NCBI GenBank assembly: GCA_043820025.1
Contig: JBDRED010000043.1
Location: 1-22,952, forward strand
Origin: JBDRED01 sp043820025 [NCBI: Elusimicrobiota bacterium]
Lineage (GTDB): Bacteria > RUG730 > JBDRED01
Direction: 5' to 3'
Length of the DNA: 22,952 bases
Shown here piece by piece: positions 6,294 through 22,715 of the stretch (within the stretch, counting starts at the first letter, position 1; each line of letters opens with the position of its first letter). A program made the translations under genes and the position numbers. The notes under the pieces are model-generated. The model did not search any database, was not told where the DNA came from, and was given only the letters and a program-made list of their open reading frames with translations.

Positions 6294-6406
6294 TGTCATT
6301 CCTGCGAAAGCAGGAATCTTTATTAGTCTTACATCTAACAATTAATCATTTTTCCTAACGATATTAGTTAACTTTTTCAAAGATGCCTGCTTCCGCAGGC
6401 ATGACA
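6294..6406. repeat. REPIN-like pair of inverted palindromes
   Basis: Two hairpins face each other in the gap between tsaC and the FTR-like gene. The left arm (6294-6321) holds ATTCCTGC-GAAA-GCAGGAAT and the right arm (6379-6406) holds ATGCCTGC-TTCC-GCAGGCAT. Both are bounded by TGTCAT on the outer side and TCTTT on the inner side. The arms differ by T/G and matching A/C changes that keep the stem paired. The hairpin type is similar to the dRS3-like ATTCC(N)GGAAT repeats of other bacteria. The remaining ~170 bases of this 281-base gap show only the ribosome site of the FTR-like gene and AT-rich sequence. Confidence 0.75.
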
Positions 6407-8813: not shown

Positions 8814-9609
8814 TTATACAATCCCCCTTAATATTTCTTATTATAATTCGTGTCAGATTCTGTCTCGCTTTTAAACAATTCTTATACAAAACTGCGCATC
8901 TATATAAGTCCAATACCGACGCGCCTTTATCCGATAATTCGCGAAACGTGTGAAACAATCCCTTTCTTTTAAAACAAACCGGCAAAAGTTCAGTCATAGG
9001 AAACACAAAAAAGTAATCATCAGATATTCCTTTAAGGATACTAAAGGATACATTGTGTTGTCTACAAAAAAGAGCCGCGTGCCAGGATTCCATATCAACT
9101 AAACACGCTTCTTGAAAACTATTTTTTATATCAGTTTTCAAATTCTTATCTGCTAAGCCATTAGTTGTGACAATAGCGTTTCTATAATTTAGTTTCCTAA
9201 TGGTTCTTTTCTTACTGGGACACTCCTCCCCGCCGCTAAATACACCCTCGAGGAATATCCCCATTTCACTTACAGGAATACTCCCTTGGTCATTTATTAC
9301 CTTACAAGGCATGACACAATCGCCGACATTTAGCTGAGGCACGACAGCGCCGGCCAAACCGATAAAGACAATGTGTATATTTTCCGGCAGAGCATTCAAT
9401 ATAATTGATAAATTCTTAACTACCTTATTCTTTCCAACGCCCATACAGCCTGTATAAACAATTGTATTATTAATTTCGTAGGATTCTAAAAATATTTTCT
9501 TTTCCGGTATAATATTTTTACTGTTTTGGGAAAGTTTTTTTAGGTTTTTGGAAATATCTTTCATTTCCCATTTCATTGCAGATAACAAGACTAGTGTTTT
9601 GTGTTTCAT
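8806..9609 (-). CDS. Phosphorylase-superfamily (nucleosidase-like) protein with in-frame repeat insertion
   Basis: A 267-residue protein of the purine/uridine phosphorylase superfamily, which cleaves N-glycosidic bonds of nucleosides or related compounds. The N-terminus (TLVLLSAMKWEM) resembles the first strand of the nucleosidase fold. IVYTGCMGVGKNKV and IVFIGLAGAVVPQLNVGDCVMP follow the pattern of MTA/SAH-nucleosidase-like proteins, and CLVDMES (near residue 170) is the conserved DMES nucleoside-binding motif. Overall it looks closest to hopanoid-associated or futalosine-hydrolase-like branches, but the substrate cannot be decided. Residues 117-132 (GIFLEGVFSGGEECPS) are encoded by a palindromic repeat that also occurs free at 9794-9832. 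No strong ribosome site precedes the ATG. It overlaps yicC by 8 bases. Confidence 0.8.
   Translation of the reverse strand: MKHKTLVLLSAMKWEMKDISKNLKKLSQNSKNIIPEKKIFLESYEINNTIVYTGCMGVGKNKVVKNLSIILNALPENIHIVFIGLAGAVVPQLNVGDCVMPCKVINDQGSIPVSEMGIFLEGVFSGGEECPSKKRTIRKLNYRNAIVTTNGLADKNLKTDIKNSFQEACLVDMESWHAALFCRQHNVSFSILKGISDDYFFVFPMTELLPVCFKRKGLFHTFRELSDKGASVLDLYRCAVLYKNCLKARQNLTRIIIRNIKGDCIND
9216..9261 (-). repeat. Family-2 palindromic element inserted in frame in the phosphorylase-superfamily gene
   Basis: On the plus strand it begins GGGACACTCCTC, continues through CTAAATACACCCT and ends GAGGAATATCCCC. The intergenic element at 9794-9832 has the same order (GGGGACACTCCTC, TAAATAAACCCT, GATGAATGTCCCC) but lacks about 7 bases in the middle. 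The termini are inverted repeats of each other. It encodes GIFLEGVFSGGEECPS without a stop in the frame used. Confidence 0.8.
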
Positions 9610-9645
9610 AAATATTTACTTGTCTTTCCTGTGCTCCCTCTGTCT

Positions 9646-9663
9646 TTCCTGCGTAGGCAGGAA
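9646..9663. repeat. dRS3-like hairpin TTCCTGC-GTAG-GCAGGAA
   Basis: A perfect 7-bp stem with a 4-base loop, the same hairpin type as the left arm at 6294-6321. The outer TGTCTTTCCTG is also found once more at 9621-9631, so a second, truncated copy may lie beside it. It is part of a 250-base gap (9610-9859) that holds repeats and no gene. Confidence 0.65.
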
Positions 9664-9667
9664 TCCC

Positions 9668-9764
9668 TTGCCGGACACGGTTTGTCACCCCCCTCACCCT
9701 AACCCTCTCCCCACAGGGGCGAGGGAATAATAAATTCCTAATTGCCGGACAGGGTTTGTCACCC
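9668..9764. repeat. Direct repeat pair TTGCCGGACA(C/G)GGTTTGTCACCC
   Basis: Copies at 9668-9690 and 9742-9764 differ at one base over 23. A related sequence (TTGCCGGATGGGGTTTTCA) begins near 22754, in the gap before the giant gene, so this is a dispersed motif. Between the two copies lies the hairpin at 9703-9725. Confidence 0.7.
9703..9725. repeat. Hairpin CCCTCTCCCC-ACA-GGGGCGAGGG
   Basis: A 10-bp stem with one mismatch, preceded by CCCCTCACCCTAA. This is the recognisable form of a GC-rich dispersed repeat seen in many bacterial genomes. It is bracketed by the TTGCCGG direct repeats. A possible relative sits at 5817-5838. Confidence 0.65.
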
Positions 9765-9793
9765 TAAATAAAGAACTGAATTATTTATCTTTT

Positions 9794-9832
9794 GGGGACA
9801 CTCCTCTAAATAAACCCTTGATGAATGTCCCC
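9794..9832. repeat. Family-2 palindromic element, intergenic copy
   Basis: GGGGACACTCCTC at the left end and GATGAATGTCCCC at the right end are inverted repeats with few mismatches, enclosing TAAATAAACCCTT. It lies just downstream of eno (stop at 9860) on that gene's strand and is homologous to the copy inside the phosphorylase-superfamily gene at 9216-9261. No T-run follows, so it does not look like an intrinsic terminator. Confidence 0.75.
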
Positions 9833-9859: not shown

Positions 9860-11165
<1,306 letters not shown>

Positions 11166-11263: not shown

Positions 11264-12718
11264 CTATTTATATATTATCTCTTTTCCTGCTTTTAGTAAT
11301 TTACTTAATCCCTGCTTGGAGCGAGATTCAATATAACATCTTACTATAGGCTCTGTGCCTGAAAGCCTTATCCCTAACCAATCTCCATTTTCGCACTCAA
11401 CCTTAAATCCGTCTAACCTGTTCACTTTTTTAACCTTATTACCCGCAATAACGCTAGGTTCAAATGTCATAAGCCTTTCTCTTAGCGAGTCCATTACCGT
11501 TTGATCCAGCCTTAGATTTGTTCTTTCTGAATAAAAGATTCCTACCTCTTTTTGAAGATCATTAAGAATTTTTTTAATACTCTTTTTTTCCATTGCAGCC
11601 ATCTCAACTGCCAAAAGACACGCTACTATTCCATCCTTTTCCGGAACATGGCCTTTTATTGTAAGCCCGCCGCTTTCCTCGCCTCCTATTACCAACGACT
11701 CCTTAACCAATATATCGCCGATATACTTAAACCCTACAGGCGTTTCACGAAGCTCAAGTCCCCATTTCCCGGCAACAGCGTCTATAAATGATGATGTCAT
11801 AACACTTCGCGCAATAATACCTTTCCATTTCCGCGTCTTAGCAAGATGATTAGCTAAAAGCGCGATTACCTCATTAGCAGAAATATAAGACCCATCGCTG
11901 TCAATAATCCCAAATCTGTCAGCGTCGCCATCGCTTGCTATTCCCAGTCTAAATTTTTTGGATTTTACCATCTTAATAATTTCAGTTAAATAAACCTCAG
12001 CAGGTTCCGGATGGTGGCCGCCAAACATACAGTCGCGGTTTTCATGCACAATAGCGTACGGGATTTTATGTTGTTTTAGTATTTCACCGAGATATCCCCG
12101 CCCTGCGCCGTGCATAACATCAACAGCAATTTTTATTTTTGATTTTCTTATAGCGTCAAAATTTATGAGCTGTGACACGCGTTTTAAGTATGTCTTCTTA
12201 AATGACCTGACAATTATCATTTTTTTCTTAACAGCTTCATTAAATGGAACTCTGTTTATTCTTGATGTATCGTTCTGTATTTCATTACAATTTATTTCTA
12301 TCTGTTTTGTTGTTTCAGGAAGCGCCGGCCCTCCCCATGCAGGTGAAAACTTGAGTCCGCTATACATATACGGATTATGGGAAGCTGTAATATTTATTCC
12401 GCCGCGCGCTTTTTTTCTTATTATTTCATACGCAATGGTTGGGGTTGGAACATCTTCACTGCTATAACTTACCTTAAAACCATTTGCGGCAAACACCTCG
12501 CTCGCAGCTTTAGCAAAGTCCTCTGACATAAACCGCGTGTCATATCCAACAATTATTTCACCCCTCGTGTCTCCGTAGTGGACAGTCCCGCATGCGGGGA
12601 CTGTCTCCTGTAAACCTATCAAATAATCGCAGATTGCCTGCGCAGCGCAATACACGCGGTCATAAGTAAAACCTTTTGCTATTATATCACGCCAGCCTGA
12701 CGTGCCAAATTTAATCAT
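11264..12718 (-). CDS. Phosphoglucomutase/phosphomannomutase with in-frame palindromic insertion
   Basis: An alpha-D-phosphohexomutase of 484 residues, moving phosphate between C6 and C1 of glucose or mannose for glycogen, envelope and nucleotide-sugar supply. Signatures in order: FGTSGWRDI (4-12), the catalytic phosphoserine loop TASHNP (Ser113), the metal loop DGDADRFG, the sugar-specificity loop GEESGG and the phosphate-binding RLSGTEPIVRCY near the C-terminus. The ATG at 12718 is chosen because GGAGG lies 4 bases before it and MIKFGTSGWRDI is the family N-terminus; the open frame extends to 12868 only through a repeat. Residues ~38-46 (ETVPACGTV), between the first helix and IIVGYDTR, are encoded by a family-1 palindrome. 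Whether glucose or mannose is preferred cannot be told. Confidence 0.94.
   Translation of the reverse strand: MIKFGTSGWRDIIAKGFTYDRVYCAAQAICDYLIGLQETVPACGTVHYGDTRGEIIVGYDTRFMSEDFAKAASEVFAANGFKVSYSSEDVPTPTIAYEIIRKKARGGINITASHNPYMYSGLKFSPAWGGPALPETTKQIEINCNEIQNDTSRINRVPFNEAVKKKMIIVRSFKKTYLKRVSQLINFDAIRKSKIKIAVDVMHGAGRGYLGEILKQHKIPYAIVHENRDCMFGGHHPEPAEVYLTEIIKMVKSKKFRLGIASDGDADRFGIIDSDGSYISANEVIALLANHLAKTRKWKGIIARSVMTSSFIDAVAGKWGLELRETPVGFKYIGDILVKESLVIGGEESGGLTIKGHVPEKDGIVACLLAVEMAAMEKKSIKKILNDLQKEVGIFYSERTNLRLDQTVMDSLRERLMTFEPSVIAGNKVKKVNRLDGFKVECENGDWLGIRLSGTEPIVRCYIESRSKQGLSKLLKAGKEIIYK
12579..12608 (-). repeat. Family-1 palindromic element, in frame inside the phosphohexomutase gene
   Basis: TGGACAGTCCC-GCATGC-GGGGACTGTCTCC: the inner 9-base arms pair, with the outer bases drifted. 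It encodes ETVPACGTV in the same reading frame as the two copies in priA. It falls between two core elements of the enzyme's first domain. Confidence 0.85.
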
Positions 12719-12720
12719 AG

Positions 12721-12727
12721 TTCCTCC
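12721..12727 (-). promoter_or_regulatory. Ribosome binding site fixing the phosphohexomutase start
   Basis: GGAGGAA on the minus strand lies just before the ATG at 12718. It rules out the longer open frame, whose first ~50 residues would come from the intergenic palindrome at 12739-12769 and flanks. Confidence 0.8.
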
Positions 12728-12738
12728 AAGAATTAAAA

Positions 12739-12769
12739 GGGGACAGTCCCGCATACGGGGACTGTCCCC
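12739..12769. repeat. Family-1 palindromic element, intergenic copy between priA and the phosphohexomutase gene
   Basis: GGGGACAGTCCC-GCATAC-GGGGACTGTCCCC, the most intact copy in the window, followed on the plus strand by GGTGAACCT, which is shared with the copy at 12930. It fills part of the 121-base gap. No T-run follows on the minus strand. Confidence 0.85.
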
Positions 12770-12839
12770 GGTGAACCTCTCAGTAATATCTACATAAGTT
12801 ATTATTATAATAAATACAGAGAAAATTTCATCATTTTTT

Positions 12840-15011
12840 TTACAGCATGCTGACAGGATCAACATCAATGTTCATATGCATACCTTTTGACAGGCGATAG
12901 GATTTAATGATATTTATCCAAACTTCAGAAGGGACAGTCCCAAATGCGGGGACTGTCCCCGGTGAAACTTCTTTCACCACTATATGCCATCTGTGATTGT
13001 TATATAATTTTTTAATTGCTGACTGAAACGGCCCCATTAAAATTATCCCTCTTTCCTTGAAATCTGTATCATTTCTTAATCTATCAGCTAACTCTTCACA
13101 AGCCTTAAATACCTTATCCTCATCAGGCCCTCTTAATGTTATAGAAATAAGCCTGGAAAAAGGCGGATAAAAAAGATCCTTTCTCCATTTTAATTCTTTT
13201 TCATAAAATGCTTCGTAATTATATTCCCTCATCGCGTTAACAGAATAATGATTAGGATAATATGTCTGAATAATAACCTCTCCTTGTTTTTCGCGCCTGC
13301 CGCTTCTGCCTGCAACCTGCATAAGAAGCGAAAATGTCCTCTCTGTCGCTCTAAAATCAGGAATATTTAACGCTGTGTCAGCCGAGATAACGCCAACGAG
13401 CGAAACAAGAGGAAAATCAAAACCTTTCGCAACAAGCTGTGTGCCTAATAAAATATCATACTTATGATTTTTAAAGTCATTATAAATATCCTCTATATGA
13501 TTTTTTTTATTTGTTACATCTGTATCCAGCCTTGCTATTCGCGCTGACGGAAACAGCCTCACAAGCTCCTTTTCCACCCTCTGCACACCTGCGCCATACT
13601 GCTTAATTGCCGCGCTTGAGCATTTAGGGCATACACTTGGCTTATCCGACGAGTATCCGCAATAATGGCATAAGAGCTTATTATTATCGCTATGCATAAC
13701 AAGCGCAAGGTCGCAGTGAGGACAACGCAAAACATGTCCGCACTGCCTGCAGAAAATATATGTCGCAAAGCCGCGGCGATTAAGAAAAAGTATAATCTGT
13801 TCGTTTAATTCTAAACATTTTTTTATTGAAGCTTGGAGCATTCGTGAGATCATACTAAAATTTCTCGCTTCGTATTCCTTTCTAAGATCGATTATGTGGA
13901 TATTATTAGAAGTTAAAGCTGCTTTATCATAATTAACTAGTTTTCCGTCATTCTGAGGGCTGCTGCCCGAAGAATCTCCGTAAGAGGTTAATTCACTCGA
14001 AGATCCTTCGCTTCGCTCAGGATGACGACCTCTCTCCCCATACACCTTATTCGGCAGAGTCAATAAATCATACTCGCCCTGCTTCTGTCTATACCATGTT
14101 TCAATCCTCGGAGTAGCGCTGCCTGCAAGATACACGGCATTATGATATTTTGCTCTCCACTGCCCGATTATCCTGGCATCATACGCAGGTTTTGTATCCT
14201 GCTTATATGTATCCTCCTGCTCTTCATCAACCACAATAATTCCAATATCAGAAAACGGAGCAAAAACAGCAGACCTGGCGCCCACAATAATATCTACTTC
14301 TCCGGCCTGCGCTTTCTGCCAAATAATAAATTTTTCTCTATCAGTAATCTTGCTGTGCCACACAGCTACCCTATCGCCAAATCTCGACTCAAGCCAGCTT
14401 ACAGCCTGGGGCGTAAGCGCTATTTCAGGCACTAGATAAATCGCTTTTTTACCTTTATCTAAGACTTCCTTGATCGCATTATGATAAACCTCTGTCTTGC
14501 CGCTGCCTGCAATCCCATATAAAAGAAAGGATTTATATTTCTCTGTGTAGAGCGCTGATTTGATTTGTTTTATTACAGCGGCCTGTTCGGTTGTCGGATT
14601 ATGAAAAGGGATATTGATAACTGATTTTTCTATACCATCTTTTTTATTTTTCTTTACTGCGAATTTTTTTGGTGTGATTCCCCATAGAGCCTCGCCTAGA
14701 GAACAGAGATAATAAGCTTCAATCCATTTAGCAAGGCTTAACAACTCGTCATTTATGATTGGCTGTTTATCAAGGATATCTTTAATAGGTTTTAATTTAG
14801 ATGTATCGCCTTCTACAATATCGACTATAAAGCCTATCTTATATCCATCTGCGCCAAATGGAACGCGCGCGCGTTTGCCGATTATCGCAAGAGCGTCTTC
14901 AGAGGGGACAGTCCCGCATGCCGGGACTGTCGCCGGGGAATATTCCGGCAGAGCATACTCGAAGAGCGTATTCATTGGTAATGGTAATGCGATTTTTACG
15001 ATTTGTGGCAT
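12840..15011 (-). CDS. priA: Primosomal helicase PriA carrying three repeat-derived insertions
   Basis: Superfamily-2 helicase that restarts stalled replication forks by loading the replicative helicase. Of 723 residues, the N-terminal ~110 form the 3'-DNA-end binding domain. The helicase core has GIAGSGKTEVY (166-176), YLVPEIALTPQ (192-202), motif II VDEEQ (261-265, usually DEEH) and LAGSATPR. An eight-cysteine zinc region (CRQCGHVLRCPHC, LLCHYCGY, CPKC) follows, then LGTQLVAKGFDFP and QVAGRSGR. Three stretches are not family sequence: residues ~27-38 (ATVPACGTVPSE) and ~683-696 (SPGTVPAFGTVPSE) come from family-1 palindromes, and ~329-357 (HPERSEGSSSE... to ...NDGK) from an 82-bp REPIN-like element. 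All are in frame and avoid the motifs. The start has GAAGGAA upstream. The gene lies directly downstream of the RAYT module. Confidence 0.96.
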   Translation of the reverse strand: MPQIVKIALPLPMNTLFEYALPEYSPATVPACGTVPSEDALAIIGKRARVPFGADGYKIGFIVDIVEGDTSKLKPIKDILDKQPIINDELLSLAKWIEAYYLCSLGEALWGITPKKFAVKKNKKDGIEKSVINIPFHNPTTEQAAVIKQIKSALYTEKYKSFLLYGIAGSGKTEVYHNAIKEVLDKGKKAIYLVPEIALTPQAVSWLESRFGDRVAVWHSKITDREKFIIWQKAQAGEVDIIVGARSAVFAPFSDIGIIVVDEEQEDTYKQDTKPAYDARIIGQWRAKYHNAVYLAGSATPRIETWYRQKQGEYDLLTLPNKVYGERGRHPERSEGSSSELTSYGDSSGSSPQNDGKLVNYDKAALTSNNIHIIDLRKEYEARNFSMISRMLQASIKKCLELNEQIILFLNRRGFATYIFCRQCGHVLRCPHCDLALVMHSDNNKLLCHYCGYSSDKPSVCPKCSSAAIKQYGAGVQRVEKELVRLFPSARIARLDTDVTNKKNHIEDIYNDFKNHKYDILLGTQLVAKGFDFPLVSLVGVISADTALNIPDFRATERTFSLLMQVAGRSGRREKQGEVIIQTYYPNHYSVNAMREYNYEAFYEKELKWRKDLFYPPFSRLISITLRGPDEDKVFKACEELADRLRNDTDFKERGIILMGPFQSAIKKLYNNHRWHIVVKEVSPGTVPAFGTVPSEVWINIIKSYRLSKGMHMNIDVDPVSML
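12930..12960 (-). repeat. Family-1 palindromic element, in frame near the 3' end of priA
   Basis: AGGGACAGTCCC-AAATGC-GGGGACTGTCCCC, followed on the plus strand by GGTGAAACT as in the intergenic copy. It encodes PGTVPAFGTVP in the PriA C-terminal domain. Confidence 0.85.
13946..14027 (-). repeat. REPIN-like element of 82 bp, in frame in the middle of priA
   Basis: The ends are inverted: CGTCATTCTGAG on the left and CTCAGGATGACG on the right. The left part folds through GGGC-TGCT-GCCC and the right through ATCCTTCGCTTCGCTCAGGAT. The coding-strand version, CATCCTGAGCGAAGCGAAGG, is a very common dispersed bacterial repeat. It encodes HPERSEGSSSE and SGSSPQNDG between the helicase motif region and the zinc-binding region. 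Confidence 0.85.
14904..14934 (-). repeat. Family-1 palindromic element, in frame near the 5' end of priA
   Basis: GGGGACAGTCCC-GCATGC-CGGGACTGTCGCC with a few drifted bases in the right arm. It encodes ATVPACGTVPS in the N-terminal DNA-binding domain. Confidence 0.85.
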
Positions 15012-15031
15012 AAGATAAATTCCTTCGTTTG

Positions 15032-15123
15032 CGGGGCCTGAAGGCCCCGGGCTACATCGTTTGAGTTTAAATACATCGTTTTTCTCTTCTCTCTCGTTGT
15101 AGCCCGGGGGCTTCAGCCCCCGG
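15032..15123. repeat. REPIN copy 1, downstream flank of the RAYT gene
   Basis: Two REPs in opposite orientation: arm a (15032-15056) has GGGGCC-TGAA-GGCCCC followed by GGGCTACA; arm b (15098-15123) has TGTAGCCC followed by GGGGGC-TTCA-GCCCCC. The ~42-base middle contains TACATCGTTT twice and a pyrimidine run. From GGGGCCTG to the final CCGG it is identical to copy 2 at 15619-15712. Arm b overlaps the RAYT stop codon. Confidence 0.92.
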
Positions 15124-15598
15124 TATTTAAAATATCATCAATATTATAATCTATCGATCCTAAATACTTGTAATCTTTAAAATCTGTAACAATATTTTTA
15201 CGGACTGGATTATTTAAAACATACCTAACATGCGTTGTTAAATCATCTTCTTTTCTATGAATATAATCATAAAAACTTTCCTGCAAACCATATCCAGTCT
15301 CTTTTTTTAAATAAAAACTACTCCTTTGTTTAAATAACCTAATCGCTTCTAATATATTACTGTGTACTGTCCCCTCAATAATAAAATGAATGTGATTCGG
15401 CATAAACACATATATATAGTTTATAATATTTTCTTTTTTAATTTCTTCTTTCAGAAAATTCACTACATTAATAATTATTTCATTTTTATTAAAAATTATT
15501 TTTCTTTGGTCTGAACATATTGTCACAGTTAGACGAACATTACCTTTGTAATTGTTCTCATTTAATCTATGTTTTTTTCGTTTAATTATTTTTTTCAT
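15113..15598 (-). CDS. REP-associated tyrosine transposase (RAYT, Y1/IS200-like)
   Basis: A 161-residue single-strand HUH nuclease of the Y1 transposase family, which in studied cases binds and cuts REP hairpins. The HUH motif is in FMPNHIHFII (His69 and His71). The N-terminal KKHRLNENNYKGNVRLTVTICSDQRKIIF and the C-terminal FYDYIHRKEDDLTTHVRYVLNNPVRKNIV match RAYT-type proteins. Tyr96, 110, 112 and 126 are candidates for the nucleophile; I cannot assign it by eye. Length is normal and there is no frameshift, so it may be active. Two identical REPINs flank it, and its last codons (ACC GGG GGC TGA) lie inside the downstream REP, whose hairpin loop TGAA supplies the stop. Only a weak ribosome site precedes the ATG. 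Confidence 0.92.
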   Translation of the reverse strand: MKKIIKRKKHRLNENNYKGNVRLTVTICSDQRKIIFNKNEIIINVVNFLKEEIKKENIINYIYVFMPNHIHFIIEGTVHSNILEAIRLFKQRSSFYLKKETGYGLQESFYDYIHRKEDDLTTHVRYVLNNPVRKNIVTDFKDYKYLGSIDYNIDDILNTGG

Positions 15599-15618
15599 AG
15601 TTTACTTCGTTTGTGTTT

Positions 15619-15712
15619 CCGGGGCCTGAAGGCCCCGGGCTACATCGTTTGAGTTTAAATACATCGTTTTTCTCTTCTCTCTCGTTGTAGCCCGGGGGCT
15701 TCAGCCCCCGGG
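15619..15712. repeat. REPIN copy 2, upstream flank of the RAYT gene
   Basis: Same structure and orientation as copy 1: CCGGGGCC-TGAA-GGCCCCGG, GGGCTACA, the spacer with TACATCGTTT twice, then TGTAGCCC and GGGGGC-TTCA-GCCCCC. It starts 21 bases before the RAYT start codon and is preceded by TTCGTTTGTGTTTC, which is repeated before copy 3. Confidence 0.92.
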
Positions 15713-15729
15713 TTGTTTCGTTTGTGTTT

Positions 15730-15780
15730 CCGGGGCCTGAAGGCCCCGGGCTACATCGTTTGAGTTTAAATACATCGTTT
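15730..15780. repeat. REPIN copy 3, truncated to one arm and half the spacer
   Basis: Begins CGGGGCCTGAAGGCCCCGGG and follows copies 1 and 2 through TACATCGTTTGAGTTTAAA and TACATCGTTTT, then stops matching before the pyrimidine run and arm b. It is 18 bases from the end of copy 2 and preceded by the same TTCGTTTGTGTTTC. Confidence 0.88.
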
Positions 15781-15831
15781 TGGTTTCCGGGTCGTCCGAG
15801 TTGTATTATATCGTATCATATTTCCACAAAT

Positions 15832-15867
15832 AAAAAAAGCCCGGGGCGCGATTTGCGTCCCGGGCTT
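15832..15867 (-). terminator. Rho-independent terminator of the giant gene
   Basis: On the minus strand AAGCCCGGGACGC pairs with GCGCCCCGGGCTT (one mismatch) across a loop of about 5 bases, and seven T follow. It lies 46 bases after the giant gene's stop. It separates that gene from the RAYT module. Confidence 0.9.
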
Positions 15868-15872
15868 ATACA

Positions 15873-15903
15873 GGGGACGGTCCTAAATACGAGGACCGTC
15901 CCT
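15873..15903. repeat. Family-1 palindromic element between the giant gene's stop and its terminator
   Basis: GGGGACGGTCCT-AAATAC-GAGGACCGTCCCT. It differs from the other copies by A-to-G and matching T-to-C changes in the two arms, so the stem is preserved. It would add a second hairpin just before the terminator on the giant gene's message. Confidence 0.8.
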
Positions 15904-15912
15904 GATAGCTCA

Positions 15913-18900
15913 TTATGCCATTGATGCCATAATTTCTGCTGTTTTTAAATCTTCTTCATCCAATCTGTCTTTCTCAAGCATTTTCCTCTTCAGGAATGGA
16001 TTAATAAGCTTACGAAATATTGCTCCACCAACAGACTTACGCGCAGGCGCATCTAATATCACCTCTGCGCCAACATTCGCATCAATCAAAGTTTGTGTAA
16101 TACCTGCCTCTTCCTCAGGCGTAAACACAGGCGCAATAACAATCGGCGTCTCGAGCACTAATACTCCATTGTCTGTCTTTGCCTGCACTGCAGTAGACAT
16201 ACCTTCCTGCAGGGTAAACTCTAATGTCAATGCACTGCCATCATTTGCGCGAATATCTTCAACCTTACCCTCAACAAGCTTGCCGCCCTCAACCACATCG
16301 TGCGTAACTAATGCAGTGTGTATAACTTCATTGCCTACCTTTCTGCATACTACAACCTGCTTATATTCACTACCTTGCGCCAATTCCTTTAATTCATCTG
16401 CTGTGCGGTAATAAGCAATACCCCATTCTGCATTATACAGAGCGCCGCTGCGATCACTAACGCCATTTGCTAATTTATCAAGTTTCTGATCATTCATAGC
16501 TGAACCAAATATTTCTTTAAATTCAGCTACAGCTGCATCTTTATTACCATGTTTGTTTAACAATACAGCCATGATCAACTCAAACTTAAGAAAATTCTTT
16601 ATCATGCTTCTATCAGGCTCTGCTCCAATAACAGACCGAATATAATCTATCATTTCCTTACCGGGCGCTGTGCCCGCAGAAACAAGCTCGCCGCTTGGTG
16701 ATACATCAATTGCAGATAGTGTCCCTGTTCTTATTTCGCGTATTAAATCATCATAATTATCTCCTGCTTTGTTACCGCGAATTTGTTGCAGCGTTGCGGG
16801 ACCAGGCACATAAATACCGCCTGTACTCATTCTCTTTGCGCTGTCAGCGCTCAAATTGTCTCTATATGATGTGCTGTCACCGGTAAATACGACTGTCTTA
16901 CCATCATTTATTTTTGCCAGAAATTTTTGCACCTCAGTATCTAGGTTTCTACCTTCAACATCAACTACAATATAATCAGGTTCGCCTTTGACTATAGCCT
17001 CTCTAGCCTGTCTATAATACGCTTGGCTTACCATAGCTTGTATTTGAGCTACTTGCGCAAGATTCAGTCCCTTTTCTACTGCTTCAGTAACATACTTCTC
17101 TGCGTCTGCAGGAGTCATTTTCTGCACATACATTAAGTTATACATTAAGCTCTCTAAATACCAGTATTTATCCCCAATCTCCTCCTTAGAATCAACAAAT
17201 GTAGCAAGCGAATGCGCATTTTCAAGCATACGCACTATCTGCGACATTGGGATAGCTGCCACAGAACCATAACGCGCTATTAATGCTTCCATTTCTTTTG
17301 CTACCAGAGCCTTTTCATCATCCTCATGGCTCTTAATGCCTGTTGAATATTCATTTGCATCTTCTTTGGTTAAAATACTATTCATTCCTTTCCTTACACC
17401 TGCATAGCTCTTTGACATAATTACCCTATTGCCTATTCTTACAGGACGCACTAAATCATCCATTTCTTCTACAAATACATTATCTTCCGCTACGCCAAAC
17501 TGACCTGCAATGCTTTGAGCAAGCTCCGCGTCAGCTTTATTTTCCCTTAAACCCGCTGCTTCTAAAAGACTGCTAAACGTGCCTACTCTTTTAACACCCA
17601 TCTGAGGCATAAGCCCTAGTAATGCTTGCTCTCCACCGTAAGACTGCATGCTTCGATCGCCTTCTACCCGAGGTATTTCGACTGATTGTTGTAATGGTAA
17701 TCCTAATTCTGTGTACAATGGATTAATATGCTCTTCTCTGAAAAACATTTGCTTCTCGTATGCTCCGAGACTTGGAAGGCGCATATTATTATCCTGAGTA
17801 GTTCCAAATGGGAACCTACTAAGATTAATTAATTCTTGATTCGTTAATACAACGCCTATATTATAAAACGCAAACTCTTCGCCATAGAACCCACTATATA
17901 GATCGCTCATAATCTGATGAACAGCTTCCCTTATAGAAAAAACTTGATATTGTGCCAAATTATTTACCAGAAGAGTATCATGAATGTAATCCCTTTCCTC
18001 TTGTGATAAGAACCCAAATATTGTATTTACTGTATTAAATAGCAGTTTTCTCATCTCATCATCGCCGCCTTCAACATTTAAATCATTTATCATCATTACG
18101 CCTAGCGCTGCTGCCTTTGCCTTTGCGCCTTCAGCTCCGGCTACAGACGGCAATCCGGCATAAATCGGGAAAATATTTGGATTTGTCAAAGCTCCGATTG
18201 AACCCATACCAGAAAAAATCAAATTCAAGTCTTCACCCTTGTATGGAAGCTCATAAGGATCGAACATAATTGCAAAATGCACAACTCCATCATTGTCTTT
18301 ATATGGCACTCCAACCATAGCAAATGACGAAGGCACTCTTAATGCTCTATCATAAGACTTAAGTTCTTTCCTTACAGAATATGCGAGCCTGCCATTCTCT
18401 TCTATTACGCGGTCTAAGATTGCCCTACTTCCGATACTCGAAACCGTCTTAGAAGAAAATCTTGAATTAAGTATTGCTACTCCATCATTAATTACTAAGG
18501 TTTCTCCTTCATTTAATACAAGCTCAGTATTTTGAAGTACAACATCCCCATGAATTTCCAGAGTGCCGTTTCCTTTAATTATTGCTTTATCTACAAGAAG
18601 CCTGCCTTCACCTGTTATAATGACCTCGCCACTAATAATAGAATTTTTTTCATACTTTCTTACATTAGAATTAGCAACCTGAACCCAGTCTGCCTCAGGA
18701 ACCGCAGCAACATCAGTTAAATAACTGCCTCTAAGAGCGCTTAAACTGCCTACATCATCCCAGTTATTAACAGCTGCGCCCATAAACTGCATATCAGGCA
18801 TATTATCTATTATACGAGTTCTTTCGTCAGCGTTCTCTATCCCTTTACTAAGCAGAATCGCATCAATCGCGTCTCTATCATCCTGCGTACTTCCTCTCTT

Positions 18901-21900
18901 TTTATAGTGAACTACATACCATTGATATCTCCAATCAACATCACTAACATTTCCATGAGGAACAGCCATCCAAGCATTTAAGTCATCCTGGAAGTAACAT
19001 TGCACAACAGTTTGGAATATTGATACCTGATGATGCCAAATTAATGTAACAGGTATTCTGAACTGCTCATGCCTATCCCAGTTATAGTAATAATCATTTC
19101 CATTCATATCTTTAGGCAAGGTAACAGGTATATTAAGCGCATCAAACAGCCCCAAGTATACCTTCTTTGAGATTACATCAACAAATGAGTTTGCAAATAT
19201 GTCTGTAACAGGATTAGTATATAAGAATTCTGTCAAATCCTGAGCACTAGGCTTTTCCAGGAACGAAACCAAAGCCCCATTATTATCTGTAAAGAATAGT
19301 CCTAATGATGTTAATTTCTTGCCGCTTATTTGCGTGCCTGCTATATCAAAGGTCTGGCCTGCCACATATCTTTGTACATGTGCTCTTAAAGTATTATCTT
19401 GTGTATAATTTGCTCTTAAATCATTCAAAGAGTTTATATTTGCCGCGCCAATACTAGTTAGATACACGTTAATCGTTTCAATAAGGCCTTGTGTTTCTTT
19501 TGGCCCAAATAAAGCAAATACCTTATCATTACCTGATGCAACTCCTGTCCATAATGCGCTATTATCAGCAATAGTAAACTTCTGGTCATTAGCCACAATA
19601 AAGACTCTTCCATTTCTGTCTGCCGCCGGCTGAAGCATTATGCCTGCCATATTATTGAATAATGATGACAAAAATGTTGCCTTGGAACCAATCTGCTGAG
19701 GATCAAGATCGAAATATACAGGGCCCACGATCGCTTCAGCAACGCGCGTCTTTGAGCCGCCTGCCGGCATAACTAAAACCGGACCCGTTTCTAAAGTCCC
19801 TCTTCCTATATAATCTTCAACTCTACTAATCATACCCATCATACCACAGCGGTCATGCGGCCAGGTCTTATCTTTTTCAAGACTAATAAATATGTTGATC
19901 CCGATATCTTCTGCCAAATCATGCAGCATTCTATAGTAACCTATAGGCCCGGAATGATTATTTCTGTCAAAGTTTTTAATATTAATAAGAAGTGATAAAC
20001 CTTTTATGCCATGTTTACTACCAAATGATCTAATTAAGGTTTCTATCTGTTCCGCGGTCATCTTTTCAAAATCTAGTGTAAGTTTTTGTATTGCAGCGCC
20101 CACTTTTTCATCAGGATCAGAAACAGGCTGGGTATGGCTCATAACAAATACAGGATATTTATCCATCATAGCTTCTCCATATCCCTGCGATATTACAACG
20201 AAGTCAGGATATGCTACTCCTATTTCAGATAAATAAACAAATATATCAGAAATAATAACTCCCTTTCTAACATTCTCGTCCGCATCACTGCCTTTATCTT
20301 CATCCATTAACGCAACACCTGCATCTTTTGCTAAGACTAAGTCAGCATTCAGCTCATCTCTGCCACCTTCGTTCTTATATACATCAGCCTGCGCCTTCAT
20401 CTTTATATTTTCAAGTTTGCCTTCTGCGTCAATGCGGAGCGCCTTCTTCTTAAGATCGCTAAGCGCTGTTCTTTGTACATCAGTCTTTACAACTTCATCA
20501 CTATACTGAATCGCATTAACTCTTTCAATCACACCGCCCGCAGATTCCATCTTATCTTGAGGTGTTACAGCTGAATCAAGAATAGCATTAAGTTCAGCTA
20601 TAATCCGGTCTATATTAAGAACCTGCGGCTGTACGTCCTCATCCATTCTTTCATCATCACTGCCGTCATCGCCGCTGTCATCATCGCCGCCGCCGCCTGC
20701 GCCGGGAGCCGGAGCAGAACCAAATCTTCCAACACCATTCATTCTACCATCAACGCTTGCAAGCTGAGCGCTAACACTTATAAACTCACCAACAGCAGCT
20801 GTTGTAGTCGTATCACCCACTGTAATTGTAACTACCCCATTTTCAGCTACCTTTATTTCTCCGCCATATATTGCGGGGCTGCCGGGCTGAGCCGAGCTTT
20901 GCATTTTTCCATTCATTATAGGCACAATATTTCTAAACTCAGTTTCAGTAAGGCCGGCCAGCTTAAACATAGCCATTGCTGTTGTAAGCTTAAGCCTCTG
21001 AAGGTCAGCAGGAGAGTTTACCGTAATCCCATATTGCGCCATAACTCCCGCGGCTTCAGGAACAGCAGATAAGAAATTTTGAAGCTGTTCTTCAAGTGAA
21101 AGACTACTTTGCTGATACATACTTAGAATAGCGTATGTATCCATTGCTGTTTTCGGCATATAACCAAGCGTGCCTGCCTGCGCTGTTAAACGCGCATAGT
21201 ACACAGAATCATCTACTTCCTGCGTAATGTTTGGCGAAATTAATATGTATGACACGCCGACATTTCTTAAAAGCTCTGTGATACCTTCTGAGTGGTATCC
21301 GCCTGCTATTAAAACTGAGAGCGATGTTTTCTTTTTATAATCGCGCGGCGCGTTAAGCGTATGCTTTACAAGAGAACTGTTACGTTTTTCTGCAACGCCA
21401 TAAAACTTTTTTATAATATCAATTGATCCTTTAATGCTTGGCATCGCGTCTTTTACGCCATATTCCCAGGCAATATCAGACTTACTGCGGTTAATAAAAT
21501 CCTGAAGCCTTGCGTTAAATTCAGCTTCCTCAGCAAGATAAGTCTTTCCTTCTTTTAATGTTATTTTATTCGATATATAATTTTCCAGGAGGTTTATGTA
21601 TTTATCAAGGTATACTACTCTTTTTTGATCAGGAGTCACAGCAAGCATCTCGCGGATATCCTGCTGAAGCGAACGTTCCTCGTCAACGAGAGCCGCCGTA
21701 TTTATCGACTGCGACAATCTGACATATTCTAAATATCCATCAAGAAGCGCGTAAGTGTTTTTTATCGCAATGTTTTTTCTGGAAATAAGTCTGTCCAAAT
21801 ATATGTAAAACCTGTCACTGCCTTCCTTTTTAAACATTTCAAGACTACTCTTTTCCTTCTTTGAAAGGTGTTTTGACATAAGCATTACAACATCATTTGC

Positions 21901-22701
21901 TTCCTTATTTATAGCAGCCATCTTGCCGAGGCGCATACGCTTTTCAGCAAGCATTAAAACCTTTGAAAGATTAGGATACTCAAGATCAAACACAATACCG
22001 AAATCCGTTGAATACTGCTTTAATCTGTTTAGATATTTAACAACATTTACTTGGCCTTTAAAGTGGTCAGAAACCAGCTTTTCAAACTCAAGCTGATCCT
22101 TTGAATATATTTTGGATTTTGTTTGAGCCAGCTTATCCTTCAATAGTTTTGTGCCTTCCAATGCTTTTTTTCTAAGCTCAAGCGACTGAACCAATAGTTC
22201 GCCATCCTCATTATAAAGCCTTGAGTCCTCAGCTCCGGCAATAGTAATATTTTGACTCTCTGTCGCAAACTTTTCAGCGCCTGTCATAACGCCGCGGCCA
22301 ACCAATTCATCCACTAAACGTTCACGAACGCCAAATCCTTTCGGAATATTTTCAACAAAAGATGTATCAAGCTCGCCCCATGCGCCCTCTACAGATACAA
22401 CCTTCATCTCATCGCCATACCCTTCTTTTAGAGATTCAAGTATAGCCGCTATATTATTTTGCACCTCGCTGTGGCAATGCAGATCCTGAATACAAACGAC
22501 TGTATTTTTTCCTGAACCGCGGAATCTTTCGAGCACACGCCCGTGTTCCGGCGAGAGCACAAATTCATTGTTTACCAAATGATCCGGAGACACAGCTATT
22601 CCCGCAGGCTGAGCGAATGCGTACTGCAGTCCGCCGGACGTAATCATCATCATTACTGTAACAATACTCGAGATAATCTTTCTCATAATACCTTTCTTCA
22701 T
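15913..22701 (-). CDS. Giant exported multidomain protein with a ChaN/EreA-like N-terminus and a nucleotidyltransferase-like centre
   Basis: A 2262-residue protein of unknown function. A signal peptide (MRKIISSIVTVMMMITSG...AFA, residues 6-31) sends it out of the cytoplasm. Residues ~50-490 hold VCIQDLHCHSEVQNNI, VVSVEGAWGELD and, at the end, SVLIAGGYHSEGI; this spacing of His and Glu motifs recalls the ChaN/EreA-like fold (tentative). Residues ~660-690 are a Gly/Asp-rich linker (PAPGAGGGGDDDSGDDG). Residues ~975-1320 resemble a sugar-phosphate nucleotidyltransferase: VMPAGGSKTR, VFIVANDQKF, VSFLEKPS, NNWDDVGSLSALRGSYL. Residues ~1340-1420 look like a beta-helix. The last 800 residues are mostly soluble and unrecognised. 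The ATG at 22701 follows AGGAGG by 8 bases. It has its own terminator and appears to be a single-gene unit. Very large exported proteins are typical of Omnitrophota. Confidence 0.85.
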   Translation of the reverse strand: MKKGIMRKIISSIVTVMMMITSGGLQYAFAQPAGIAVSPDHLVNNEFVLSPEHGRVLERFRGSGKNTVVCIQDLHCHSEVQNNIAAILESLKEGYGDEMKVVSVEGAWGELDTSFVENIPKGFGVRERLVDELVGRGVMTGAEKFATESQNITIAGAEDSRLYNEDGELLVQSLELRKKALEGTKLLKDKLAQTKSKIYSKDQLEFEKLVSDHFKGQVNVVKYLNRLKQYSTDFGIVFDLEYPNLSKVLMLAEKRMRLGKMAAINKEANDVVMLMSKHLSKKEKSSLEMFKKEGSDRFYIYLDRLISRKNIAIKNTYALLDGYLEYVRLSQSINTAALVDEERSLQQDIREMLAVTPDQKRVVYLDKYINLLENYISNKITLKEGKTYLAEEAEFNARLQDFINRSKSDIAWEYGVKDAMPSIKGSIDIIKKFYGVAEKRNSSLVKHTLNAPRDYKKKTSLSVLIAGGYHSEGITELLRNVGVSYILISPNITQEVDDSVYYARLTAQAGTLGYMPKTAMDTYAILSMYQQSSLSLEEQLQNFLSAVPEAAGVMAQYGITVNSPADLQRLKLTTAMAMFKLAGLTETEFRNIVPIMNGKMQSSAQPGSPAIYGGEIKVAENGVVTITVGDTTTTAAVGEFISVSAQLASVDGRMNGVGRFGSAPAPGAGGGGDDDSGDDGSDDERMDEDVQPQVLNIDRIIAELNAILDSAVTPQDKMESAGGVIERVNAIQYSDEVVKTDVQRTALSDLKKKALRIDAEGKLENIKMKAQADVYKNEGGRDELNADLVLAKDAGVALMDEDKGSDADENVRKGVIISDIFVYLSEIGVAYPDFVVISQGYGEAMMDKYPVFVMSHTQPVSDPDEKVGAAIQKLTLDFEKMTAEQIETLIRSFGSKHGIKGLSLLINIKNFDRNNHSGPIGYYRMLHDLAEDIGINIFISLEKDKTWPHDRCGMMGMISRVEDYIGRGTLETGPVLVMPAGGSKTRVAEAIVGPVYFDLDPQQIGSKATFLSSLFNNMAGIMLQPAADRNGRVFIVANDQKFTIADNSALWTGVASGNDKVFALFGPKETQGLIETINVYLTSIGAANINSLNDLRANYTQDNTLRAHVQRYVAGQTFDIAGTQISGKKLTSLGLFFTDNNGALVSFLEKPSAQDLTEFLYTNPVTDIFANSFVDVISKKVYLGLFDALNIPVTLPKDMNGNDYYYNWDRHEQFRIPVTLIWHHQVSIFQTVVQCYFQDDLNAWMAVPHGNVSDVDWRYQWYVVHYKKRGSTQDDRDAIDAILLSKGIENADERTRIIDNMPDMQFMGAAVNNWDDVGSLSALRGSYLTDVAAVPEADWVQVANSNVRKYEKNSIISGEVIITGEGRLLVDKAIIKGNGTLEIHGDVVLQNTELVLNEGETLVINDGVAILNSRFSSKTVSSIGSRAILDRVIEENGRLAYSVRKELKSYDRALRVPSSFAMVGVPYKDNDGVVHFAIMFDPYELPYKGEDLNLIFSGMGSIGALTNPNIFPIYAGLPSVAGAEGAKAKAAALGVMMINDLNVEGGDDEMRKLLFNTVNTIFGFLSQEERDYIHDTLLVNNLAQYQVFSIREAVHQIMSDLYSGFYGEEFAFYNIGVVLTNQELINLSRFPFGTTQDNNMRLPSLGAYEKQMFFREEHINPLYTELGLPLQQSVEIPRVEGDRSMQSYGGEQALLGLMPQMGVKRVGTFSSLLEAAGLRENKADAELAQSIAGQFGVAEDNVFVEEMDDLVRPVRIGNRVIMSKSYAGVRKGMNSILTKEDANEYSTGIKSHEDDEKALVAKEMEALIARYGSVAAIPMSQIVRMLENAHSLATFVDSKEEIGDKYWYLESLMYNLMYVQKMTPADAEKYVTEAVEKGLNLAQVAQIQAMVSQAYYRQAREAIVKGEPDYIVVDVEGRNLDTEVQKFLAKINDGKTVVFTGDSTSYRDNLSADSAKRMSTGGIYVPGPATLQQIRGNKAGDNYDDLIREIRTGTLSAIDVSPSGELVSAGTAPGKEMIDYIRSVIGAEPDRSMIKNFLKFELIMAVLLNKHGNKDAAVAEFKEIFGSAMNDQKLDKLANGVSDRSGALYNAEWGIAYYRTADELKELAQGSEYKQVVVCRKVGNEVIHTALVTHDVVEGGKLVEGKVEDIRANDGSALTLEFTLQEGMSTAVQAKTDNGVLVLETPIVIAPVFTPEEEAGITQTLIDANVGAEVILDAPARKSVGGAIFRKLINPFLKRKMLEKDRLDEEDLKTAEIMASMA

Positions 22702-22709
22702 TTCTAACA

Positions 22710-22715
22710 CCTCCT
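22710..22715 (-). promoter_or_regulatory. Ribosome binding site fixing the giant protein's start
   Basis: AGGAGG lies 8 bases before the ATG at 22701. An in-frame GTG at 22710 overlaps this site and so is unlikely to be the start. Confidence 0.85.

What the first reader, a model, noticed from the sequence alone, without database searches (positions are those of the whole stretch)
12579..15903. A palindromic element that inserts in frame into essential genes: five copies in 3.3 kb, three of them coding
Seen: GGGGACAGTCCC-6 bases-GGGACTGTCCCC occurs at 12579, 12739, 12930, 14904 and 15873. The copies in the phosphohexomutase and at both ends of priA are all read as TVPA(C/F)GTV, and no family motif is damaged. 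The consensus has no stop codon in any of the six frames (I read them by hand), which is what an element tolerated inside genes would need. Known: Rickettsia palindromic elements do the same in Rickettsia proteins. Inference: this is an independent, Omnitrophota-type protein-invading palindrome; I know of no description of it.
Basis: partly seen in the sequence, partly recalled or inferred. Interest (0 to 1): 0.88.

Follow-up and report, generated by a model that had tools for sequence, protein, structure and literature searches.

The report
Mobile palindromes lodged inside bacterial genes
A short DNA palindrome sits five times in this stretch, three times inside protein genes without breaking them; it looks like a local member of a known class of tiny mobile repeats rather than a new kind of element.

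Summary
The repeat is real: five hairpin copies (12-7-12, not 12-6-12) in 3.3 kb, three read in one frame inside phosphohexomutase and priA. Two of the three coding copies are clean insertions that distant orthologues lack. The third, near the PriA C-terminus, barely lengthens the protein (34 residues against 19-32). The PriA segments fall in loops of a predicted model. 'No stop in six frames' holds for the 31-nt core only, and 40% of shuffled palindromes share it. 'Independent Omnitrophota-type' is not supported: closely similar palindromes occur in two genomes of the Peregrinibacteria phylum, one copy right behind a Y1 transposase gene, another within a long ORF; GGGAC-bearing inverted repeats flank long Y1 transposases in Bacillota. 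Di Nocera et al. 2013 already described Y1 transposases with GGGGWSAS termini, and REPs inside replication and repair genes. I read it as a non-autonomous repeat of a Y1 (HUH) transposase. The window's own genome is not held, so its copy number, cognate transposase and close empty sites are untested.

The parts
12578..12608 (.). Element A copy in frame in the phosphohexomutase gene (residues 38-48, QETVPACGTVH)
   Evidence: insertion absent from the 11 of 12 aligned homologues that cover the site and from PDB 1tuo and 9v68
12739..12769 (.). Element A copy, perfect, intergenic between the priA stop and the phosphohexomutase start
12930..12960 (.). Element A copy in frame near the 3' end of priA (residues 684-694, PGTVPAFGTVP); not a clean length insertion
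14904..14934 (.). Element A copy in frame near the 5' end of priA (residues 26-36, PATVPACGTVP); clean insertion
15873..15903 (.). Variant element A copy (GGGGACGGTCCT...AGGACCGTCCCT) downstream of the stop of the 2265-aa ORF
13946..14027 (.). CGTC-tagged REP dimer (head to head) read in frame in priA (residues 329-356, HPERSEG...PQND)
   Evidence: region is 49 residues against 8-10 in 76 of 76 PriA orthologues; pLDDT under 50 at 328-360
9216..9266 (.). Element B copy (GGGACACTCCTC...GGAATATCCCC) in frame in a phosphorylase/nucleosidase gene (residues 115-132)
   Evidence: local score 60.5 against the 9793 copy, maximum of 1000 shuffles 31.5; does not fold better than shuffles (z -0.24); not tested against orthologues as an insertion
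9793..9832 (.). Element B copy, intergenic (GGGGACACTCCTC...GAATGTCCCC)
   Evidence: hairpin z -3.69
12840..15011 (-). priA, replication restart helicase, 723 aa, carrying three repeat-derived segments
11264..12721 (-). phosphohexomutase gene, 485 aa
8806..9609 (-). PNP_UDP_1 phosphorylase/nucleosidase gene, 267 aa
15113..15598 (-). RAYT-like Y1 transposase gene, 161 aa, flanked by GTAG REPINs rather than by element A
   Evidence: REP_Tyr_transpos 72.4 bits, just under the cut-off of 80
15027..15123 (.). GTAG-tagged REPIN, overlaps the 3' end of the transposase gene
   Evidence: D1, I6
15615..15711 (.). GTAG-tagged REPIN on the other side of the transposase gene
   Evidence: D1, I2
15726..15762 (.). 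Half of a GTAG REPIN

Best explanation
Element A is a non-autonomous, REPIN-like mobile palindrome whose ends belong to the GGGGAC-type termini of Y1 (HUH, IS200-like) transposases. Inferred: a Y1 transposase encoded elsewhere in the genome recognises the hairpin in single-stranded DNA and spreads it. Insertions in genes survive only where the element reads through and lands in a loop; the insertion itself is shown here for the phosphohexomutase and the PriA N-terminal site. Inferred: the peptide has no function and is merely tolerated.
For: Two inverted GGGACWGTCCC units form a hairpin in each of the five copies (z -3.17 to -5.82). Orthologues lack the insert at two sites. In an AlphaFold model of PriA (mean pLDDT 84.3) the N copy and the CGTC dimer lie in coil under pLDDT 50 and the C copy in coil of about 60. 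In genome G344 (phylum of a Peregrinibacteria genome) a palindrome GGGGACGGTCCT...AGGACCGTCCCC, with one arm identical to the 15873 copy and the other 11 of 12, begins 6 nt behind the stop codon of a Y1 transposase gene whose 5' end is cut by the contig. G344 holds 6 dimers against 0 for the reversed-pattern control, one of them within an open frame of over 1000 codons. Long Y1 transposases (250 aa or more) in the phylum of a Bacillota genome: 8 of 10 have flanking inverted repeats longer than any of ten shuffles, 6 of them with GGGAC; 0 of 15 other rows. Perfect hairpins near Y1 genes: 21 in 26.0 kb against 10 in 106.8 kb further off (52 of 64 loci). PMC3733652: Y1 genes with GGGGWSAS termini and intragenic REPs.
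Against: No transposase flanked by element A is in the window; the one present is flanked by GTAG REPINs. Only 3 of 5 copies carry a strict GGGGWSAS. No target duplication or empty site from a close relative was seen. Only 3 of the 21 near-gene hairpins hold GGGAC, and 4 of the 21 lie in G415, a genome picked because it has the dimer. A strict dimer was absent from 299 of 299 genomes in the Bacillota phylum, a looser one from 143 of 145 in the other phylum. Compensating changes between copies are weak: 3 of 16 pairs, a number reached by 35 of 500 shuffles. The in-frame element B copy has no significant hairpin. The G344 in-ORF copy was not tested as an insertion, and that ORF has only Pfam hits below cut-off.
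Confidence: 0.75

Rival explanations
1. A new, lineage-specific protein-invading palindrome unrelated to known transposase ends, selected for reading through in all frames.
For: Three coding copies share one frame and align in one orientation. A search for strings of the sequence listed 17 papers, none by title or abstract start about a bacterial repeat.
Against: Similar palindromes in other phyla next to Y1 transposases. A stop-free core is expected in 40% of such palindromes, and the extended unit has stops in 2 of 6 frames.
Confidence: 0.1
2. The copies are regulatory or structural DNA sites (operators, terminators or mRNA stabilisers) kept by selection, with coding copies incidental.
For: Two of five copies lie between genes, one just upstream of a ribosome-binding site and one behind a stop codon beside a terminator-like hairpin (read); hairpins.
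Against: Three of five copies are in coding sequence, two of them as extra residues; no Rfam match in the window; flanking bases are shared by most copies, as in an inserted unit.
Confidence: 0.1
3. The GTAG-flanked transposase in the window also mobilises element A (a variant of the best explanation, so the odds overlap).
For: It lies within the same REP-rich 3.3 kb, and the copies are clustered (P about 0.0018).
Against: It is bounded by its own GTAG REPINs; in PMC3116915 a different REPIN cluster lies beside each RAYT (passage).
Confidence: 0.15

Closest known systems
TIRs of TIRYT (TIR-associated tyrosine transposases), Di Nocera et al. 2013, PMC3733652
   Same: Short repeats, some self-complementary, single or in dimers, some with a GGGGWSAS motif, flanking Y1 transposases and repeated in some genomes
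   Different: No cognate transposase seen in this window; 2 of 5 copies depart from strict GGGGWSAS; in the sections I read, intragenic copies are described for GTAG and CGTC repeats, not for TIRs
REPINs / GTAG REPs with RAYTs (PMC3116915, passages; PMC3733652)
   Same: Inverted doublets forming a hairpin; a RAYT-like gene with GTAG REPINs lies in the window
   Different: Element A lacks a GTAG tag in 4 of 5 copies (in 12578 a GTAG overlaps the first base); its units are 7 nt apart, against doublets with common inter-REP spacings of 71 and 110 bp in PMC3116915
Rickettsia palindromic elements (RPE)
   Same: Palindromes read in frame in protein genes
   Different: Much shorter than the ~150 bp given in PMC10969869; no abutting CGTC tag; sequences themselves were not compared
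CGTC REPs
   Same: The PriA middle insert is a CGTC head-to-head dimer in a replication gene
   Different: That is a second repeat family, not element A

Membership tests
TIRs of TIRYT | GGGGWSAS motif | tested here: inconclusive
   GGGGACAG on at least one strand in 3 of 5 copies (12739, 12930, 14904); 12578 and 15873 depart. In PMC3733652 only some TIRs share the motif
TIRs of TIRYT | flanks a Y1 transposase gene | not testable with these tools
   Own genome not held. Met by a similar palindrome in G344 and by related ends in the Bacillota phylum
GTAG REP | GTAG tetranucleotide abutting the stem | tested here: not met
   Absent at 4 of 5 element A copies; at 12578 a GTAG overlaps the first base of a decayed arm end. 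Met by the D1 repeats beside the RAYT gene
REPIN | two inverted REP units forming one hairpin | tested here: met
REPIN | mobilised in trans by a RAYT | not testable with these tools
   needs an experiment or strain polymorphism
Rickettsia palindromic elements | in-frame insertion in ORFs | tested here: met
   2 of 3 coding copies are clean insertions
Rickettsia palindromic elements | CGTC tag (RPE-4, RPE-6) or ~150 bp length | tested here: not met
   31-49 nt, no abutting CGTC
Rickettsia palindromic elements | sequence match to RPE families | not tested
   no RPE sequence was fetched
CGTC REP | CGTC at the end of the stem | tested here: not met
   Element A lacks it; the PriA insert 13946-14027 has it at both ends

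The most novel reading that the evidence does not exclude
PriA, the replication restart helicase, is a preferred landing site for palindromes moved through single-stranded DNA at forks: here it holds three repeat-derived segments of two families, perhaps because its gene or protein is linked to their transposition, and the inserts may tune PriA.
Probability: 0.06. Interest if true: 0.75.

Novelty: new member of a known kind. Interest (0 to 1): 0.4.

Why it matters
It extends gene-invading palindromes to a GGGGAC terminus type for which my searches showed no such description, and shows one replication gene holding three segments from two repeat families. It ties palindromes found inside genes to Y1 transposase ends in more than one phylum, which makes the origin of small protein inserts testable in close relatives.

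Tried and rejected
Own-genome counts: not available. The single genome-contig scan with PriA kept 80 of 90 loci, titled as Bacillota-type groups, Fusobacteriales or Leptotrichia, one Peregrinibacteria and one unnamed uncultured bacterium, 33-41% identical in the best segment, so no close relative was compared. First look at ten of those genomes: 0 of 10 with the dimer. Viral contigs: 0 exact hits; one looser hit, L085, is a GC-rich stretch with a direct repeat, rejected as chance. Plasmids: 12 records, all at E 2 or above. PMM in viral contigs: none. RAYT in viral contigs and plasmids: one weak hit each, not followed. Rfam: none. The patterns differ (strict and looser), so the Bacillota phylum was not searched for the looser dimer. 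In L133 a shorter palindrome lies in an ORF with a GTVP reading; no Pfam domain and no close relatives in 39 genomes leave it untested. L136 may be a native match. My hairpin scan of the window had a threshold too high to list element A. Dropped rows: 7 of 83 PriA homologues (not complete or short); 7 of 30 loci, where two of the 15 control rows are probably not transposases; 12 of 64 loci, L142 among them. Papers seen only as listings: PMC6006769, PMC2229807, PMC2759123 and the others.

Full report
Observation. The five copies are present but the spacer is 7, not 6. Four are close to GGGGACAGTCCC-N7-GGGACTGTCCCC; the fifth (15873) is GGGGACGGTCCT-N7-AGGACCGTCCCT. Flanking TTCA.../...TGAA bases recur in several copies, giving a unit of about 44-49 nt. 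Shuffles give none. Each copy folds into a hairpin, z -3.17 to -5.82; for 12578, 2 of 200 shuffles fold as well. Paired changes between copies are suggestive only: covariation score reached by 7 of 500 shuffles, number of pairs changed on both sides by 35 of 500 (five sequences).

Coding copies. All three use the frame TVPA(C/F)GTV. Core frames are all open; the extended unit has stops in two of six, and 39.6% of shuffled palindromes are open in six frames. So open frames are unremarkable, and a shared frame in three copies is weak evidence.

Are they insertions? 76 of 83 PriA homologues were aligned. The N copy region is 21 residues in the window against 4-8 in the 46 of 76 in which the anchor aligned; the middle segment is 49 against 8-10 in 76 of 76; the C copy region is 34 against 19-32 (median 30) in 76 of 76. 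The N copy is also a 15-residue gap against PDB 4nl4. In the phosphohexomutase the insert is missing from the 11 homologues that cover the site, of 12 aligned, and from 1tuo and 9v68. No homologue holds the peptide. These homologues are distant (PriA: 33-41% in the best segment; PMM: 23-35%), so exact boundaries are unknown. An AlphaFold model of PriA from 40 aligned sequences has mean pLDDT 84.3, with pLDDT below 50 at 25-37, 118-131 and 328-360 and about 60 at 681-700; the repeat segments are coil in it. The 118-131 loop is not repeat-derived.

More repeats in the window. PriA residues 329-356 are a CGTC-type head-to-head dimer (13946-14027). A second GGGGAC-ended element occurs at 9793-9832 and, in frame, at 9216-9266 in a PNP_UDP_1 gene; the in-frame copy does not fold better than shuffles. 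A RAYT-like gene sits between GTAG REPINs.

Relatives. No whole genome is held for the window. The strict dimer is in 0 of 299 genomes of the phylum of G003; a looser dimer is in 2 of 145 of the phylum of G002, and in 1 of 59 among G344 and its relatives, G344 itself. G344 has GGGGACTGTCCCCGCTTGCGGGGACTGTCCCC between genes and six dimers in all. One begins 6 nt behind the stop of a Y1 transposase gene (PF01797, 28.2 bits) and has nearly the arms of the 15873 copy. Of the six, five overlap no open frame of 100 codons; one lies in a frame of over 1000 codons that runs off the fetched stretch, with only Pfam hits below cut-off. G415 has CGGGACAGTCCCAAATGGGACTGTCCCG; two of its four Y1 genes (L141, L145) are bordered on both sides by perfect palindromes of other sequence. 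In the phylum of G003, 36 of 61 genomes have Y1_Tnp; the long ones carry ends such as GGGGACGGTTCT or GGGGACAGGTAC, and L114 has GGGACAGTCCCGCAT upstream of one, without a matching copy on the other side.

Literature. In PMC3733652 (abstract, outline, sections 6, 15, 16 and passages read) REPs inside genes are reported in several species, many in replication and repair genes, and Y1 genes of species without GTAG REPs have terminal repeats, some sharing GGGGWSAS. PMC3116915 (passages) defines REPINs. PMC10969869 (passages) reviews RPE. Searches for strings of the sequence, for Omnitrophota with palindromic or REP terms, for intragenic palindromes, for TIRYT terms and for priA with REPs listed no description of this element; the library lacks most subscription journals.

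Conclusion. Shown: repeat, in-frame reading, insertions at two sites, loops in a model, similar palindromes beside Y1 transposases in other phyla. Inferred: a Y1 transposase elsewhere in this genome moves it, and tolerance explains the coding copies. Phylum of the window, essentiality of the genes and expression were not tested.

Noticed in passing
window 10017-11153 (-): The enolase frame ends early at a run of G ([13 protein letters not shown]); by eye the rest of the protein reads on in another frame: a sequencing indel or a real frameshift.
   Followed up: no
window 6294-6321, 6379-6406 and near 9645-9672: GTCATTCCTGCGAAAGCAGGAATC-like palindromes, resembling (from recall) CGTC-1 / dRS3 repeats.
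   Followed up: partly
window 9668-9690 and 9742-9764: A further 23-nt direct repeat (TTGCCGGACA.GGTTTGTCACCC) beside a CCCTAACCCTCTCCCC stretch.
   Followed up: no
window 15360-15380: The RAYT gene itself contains GAGGGGACAGTACAC on its coding strand (read EGTVH), a half-site like element A; possibly chance.
   Followed up: no
window 15913-22710 (-): A 2265-aa ORF with no Pfam match at E 0.001.
   Followed up: no
L141 and L145: Y1 genes of genome G415 bordered on both sides by perfect palindromes around AATT or ATTT, each with its own arm sequence.
   Followed up: partly
L135 and L177: The long G344 ORF also repeats the peptide EIPASPAGGLRSTQDD, perhaps another in-frame repeat.
   Followed up: no
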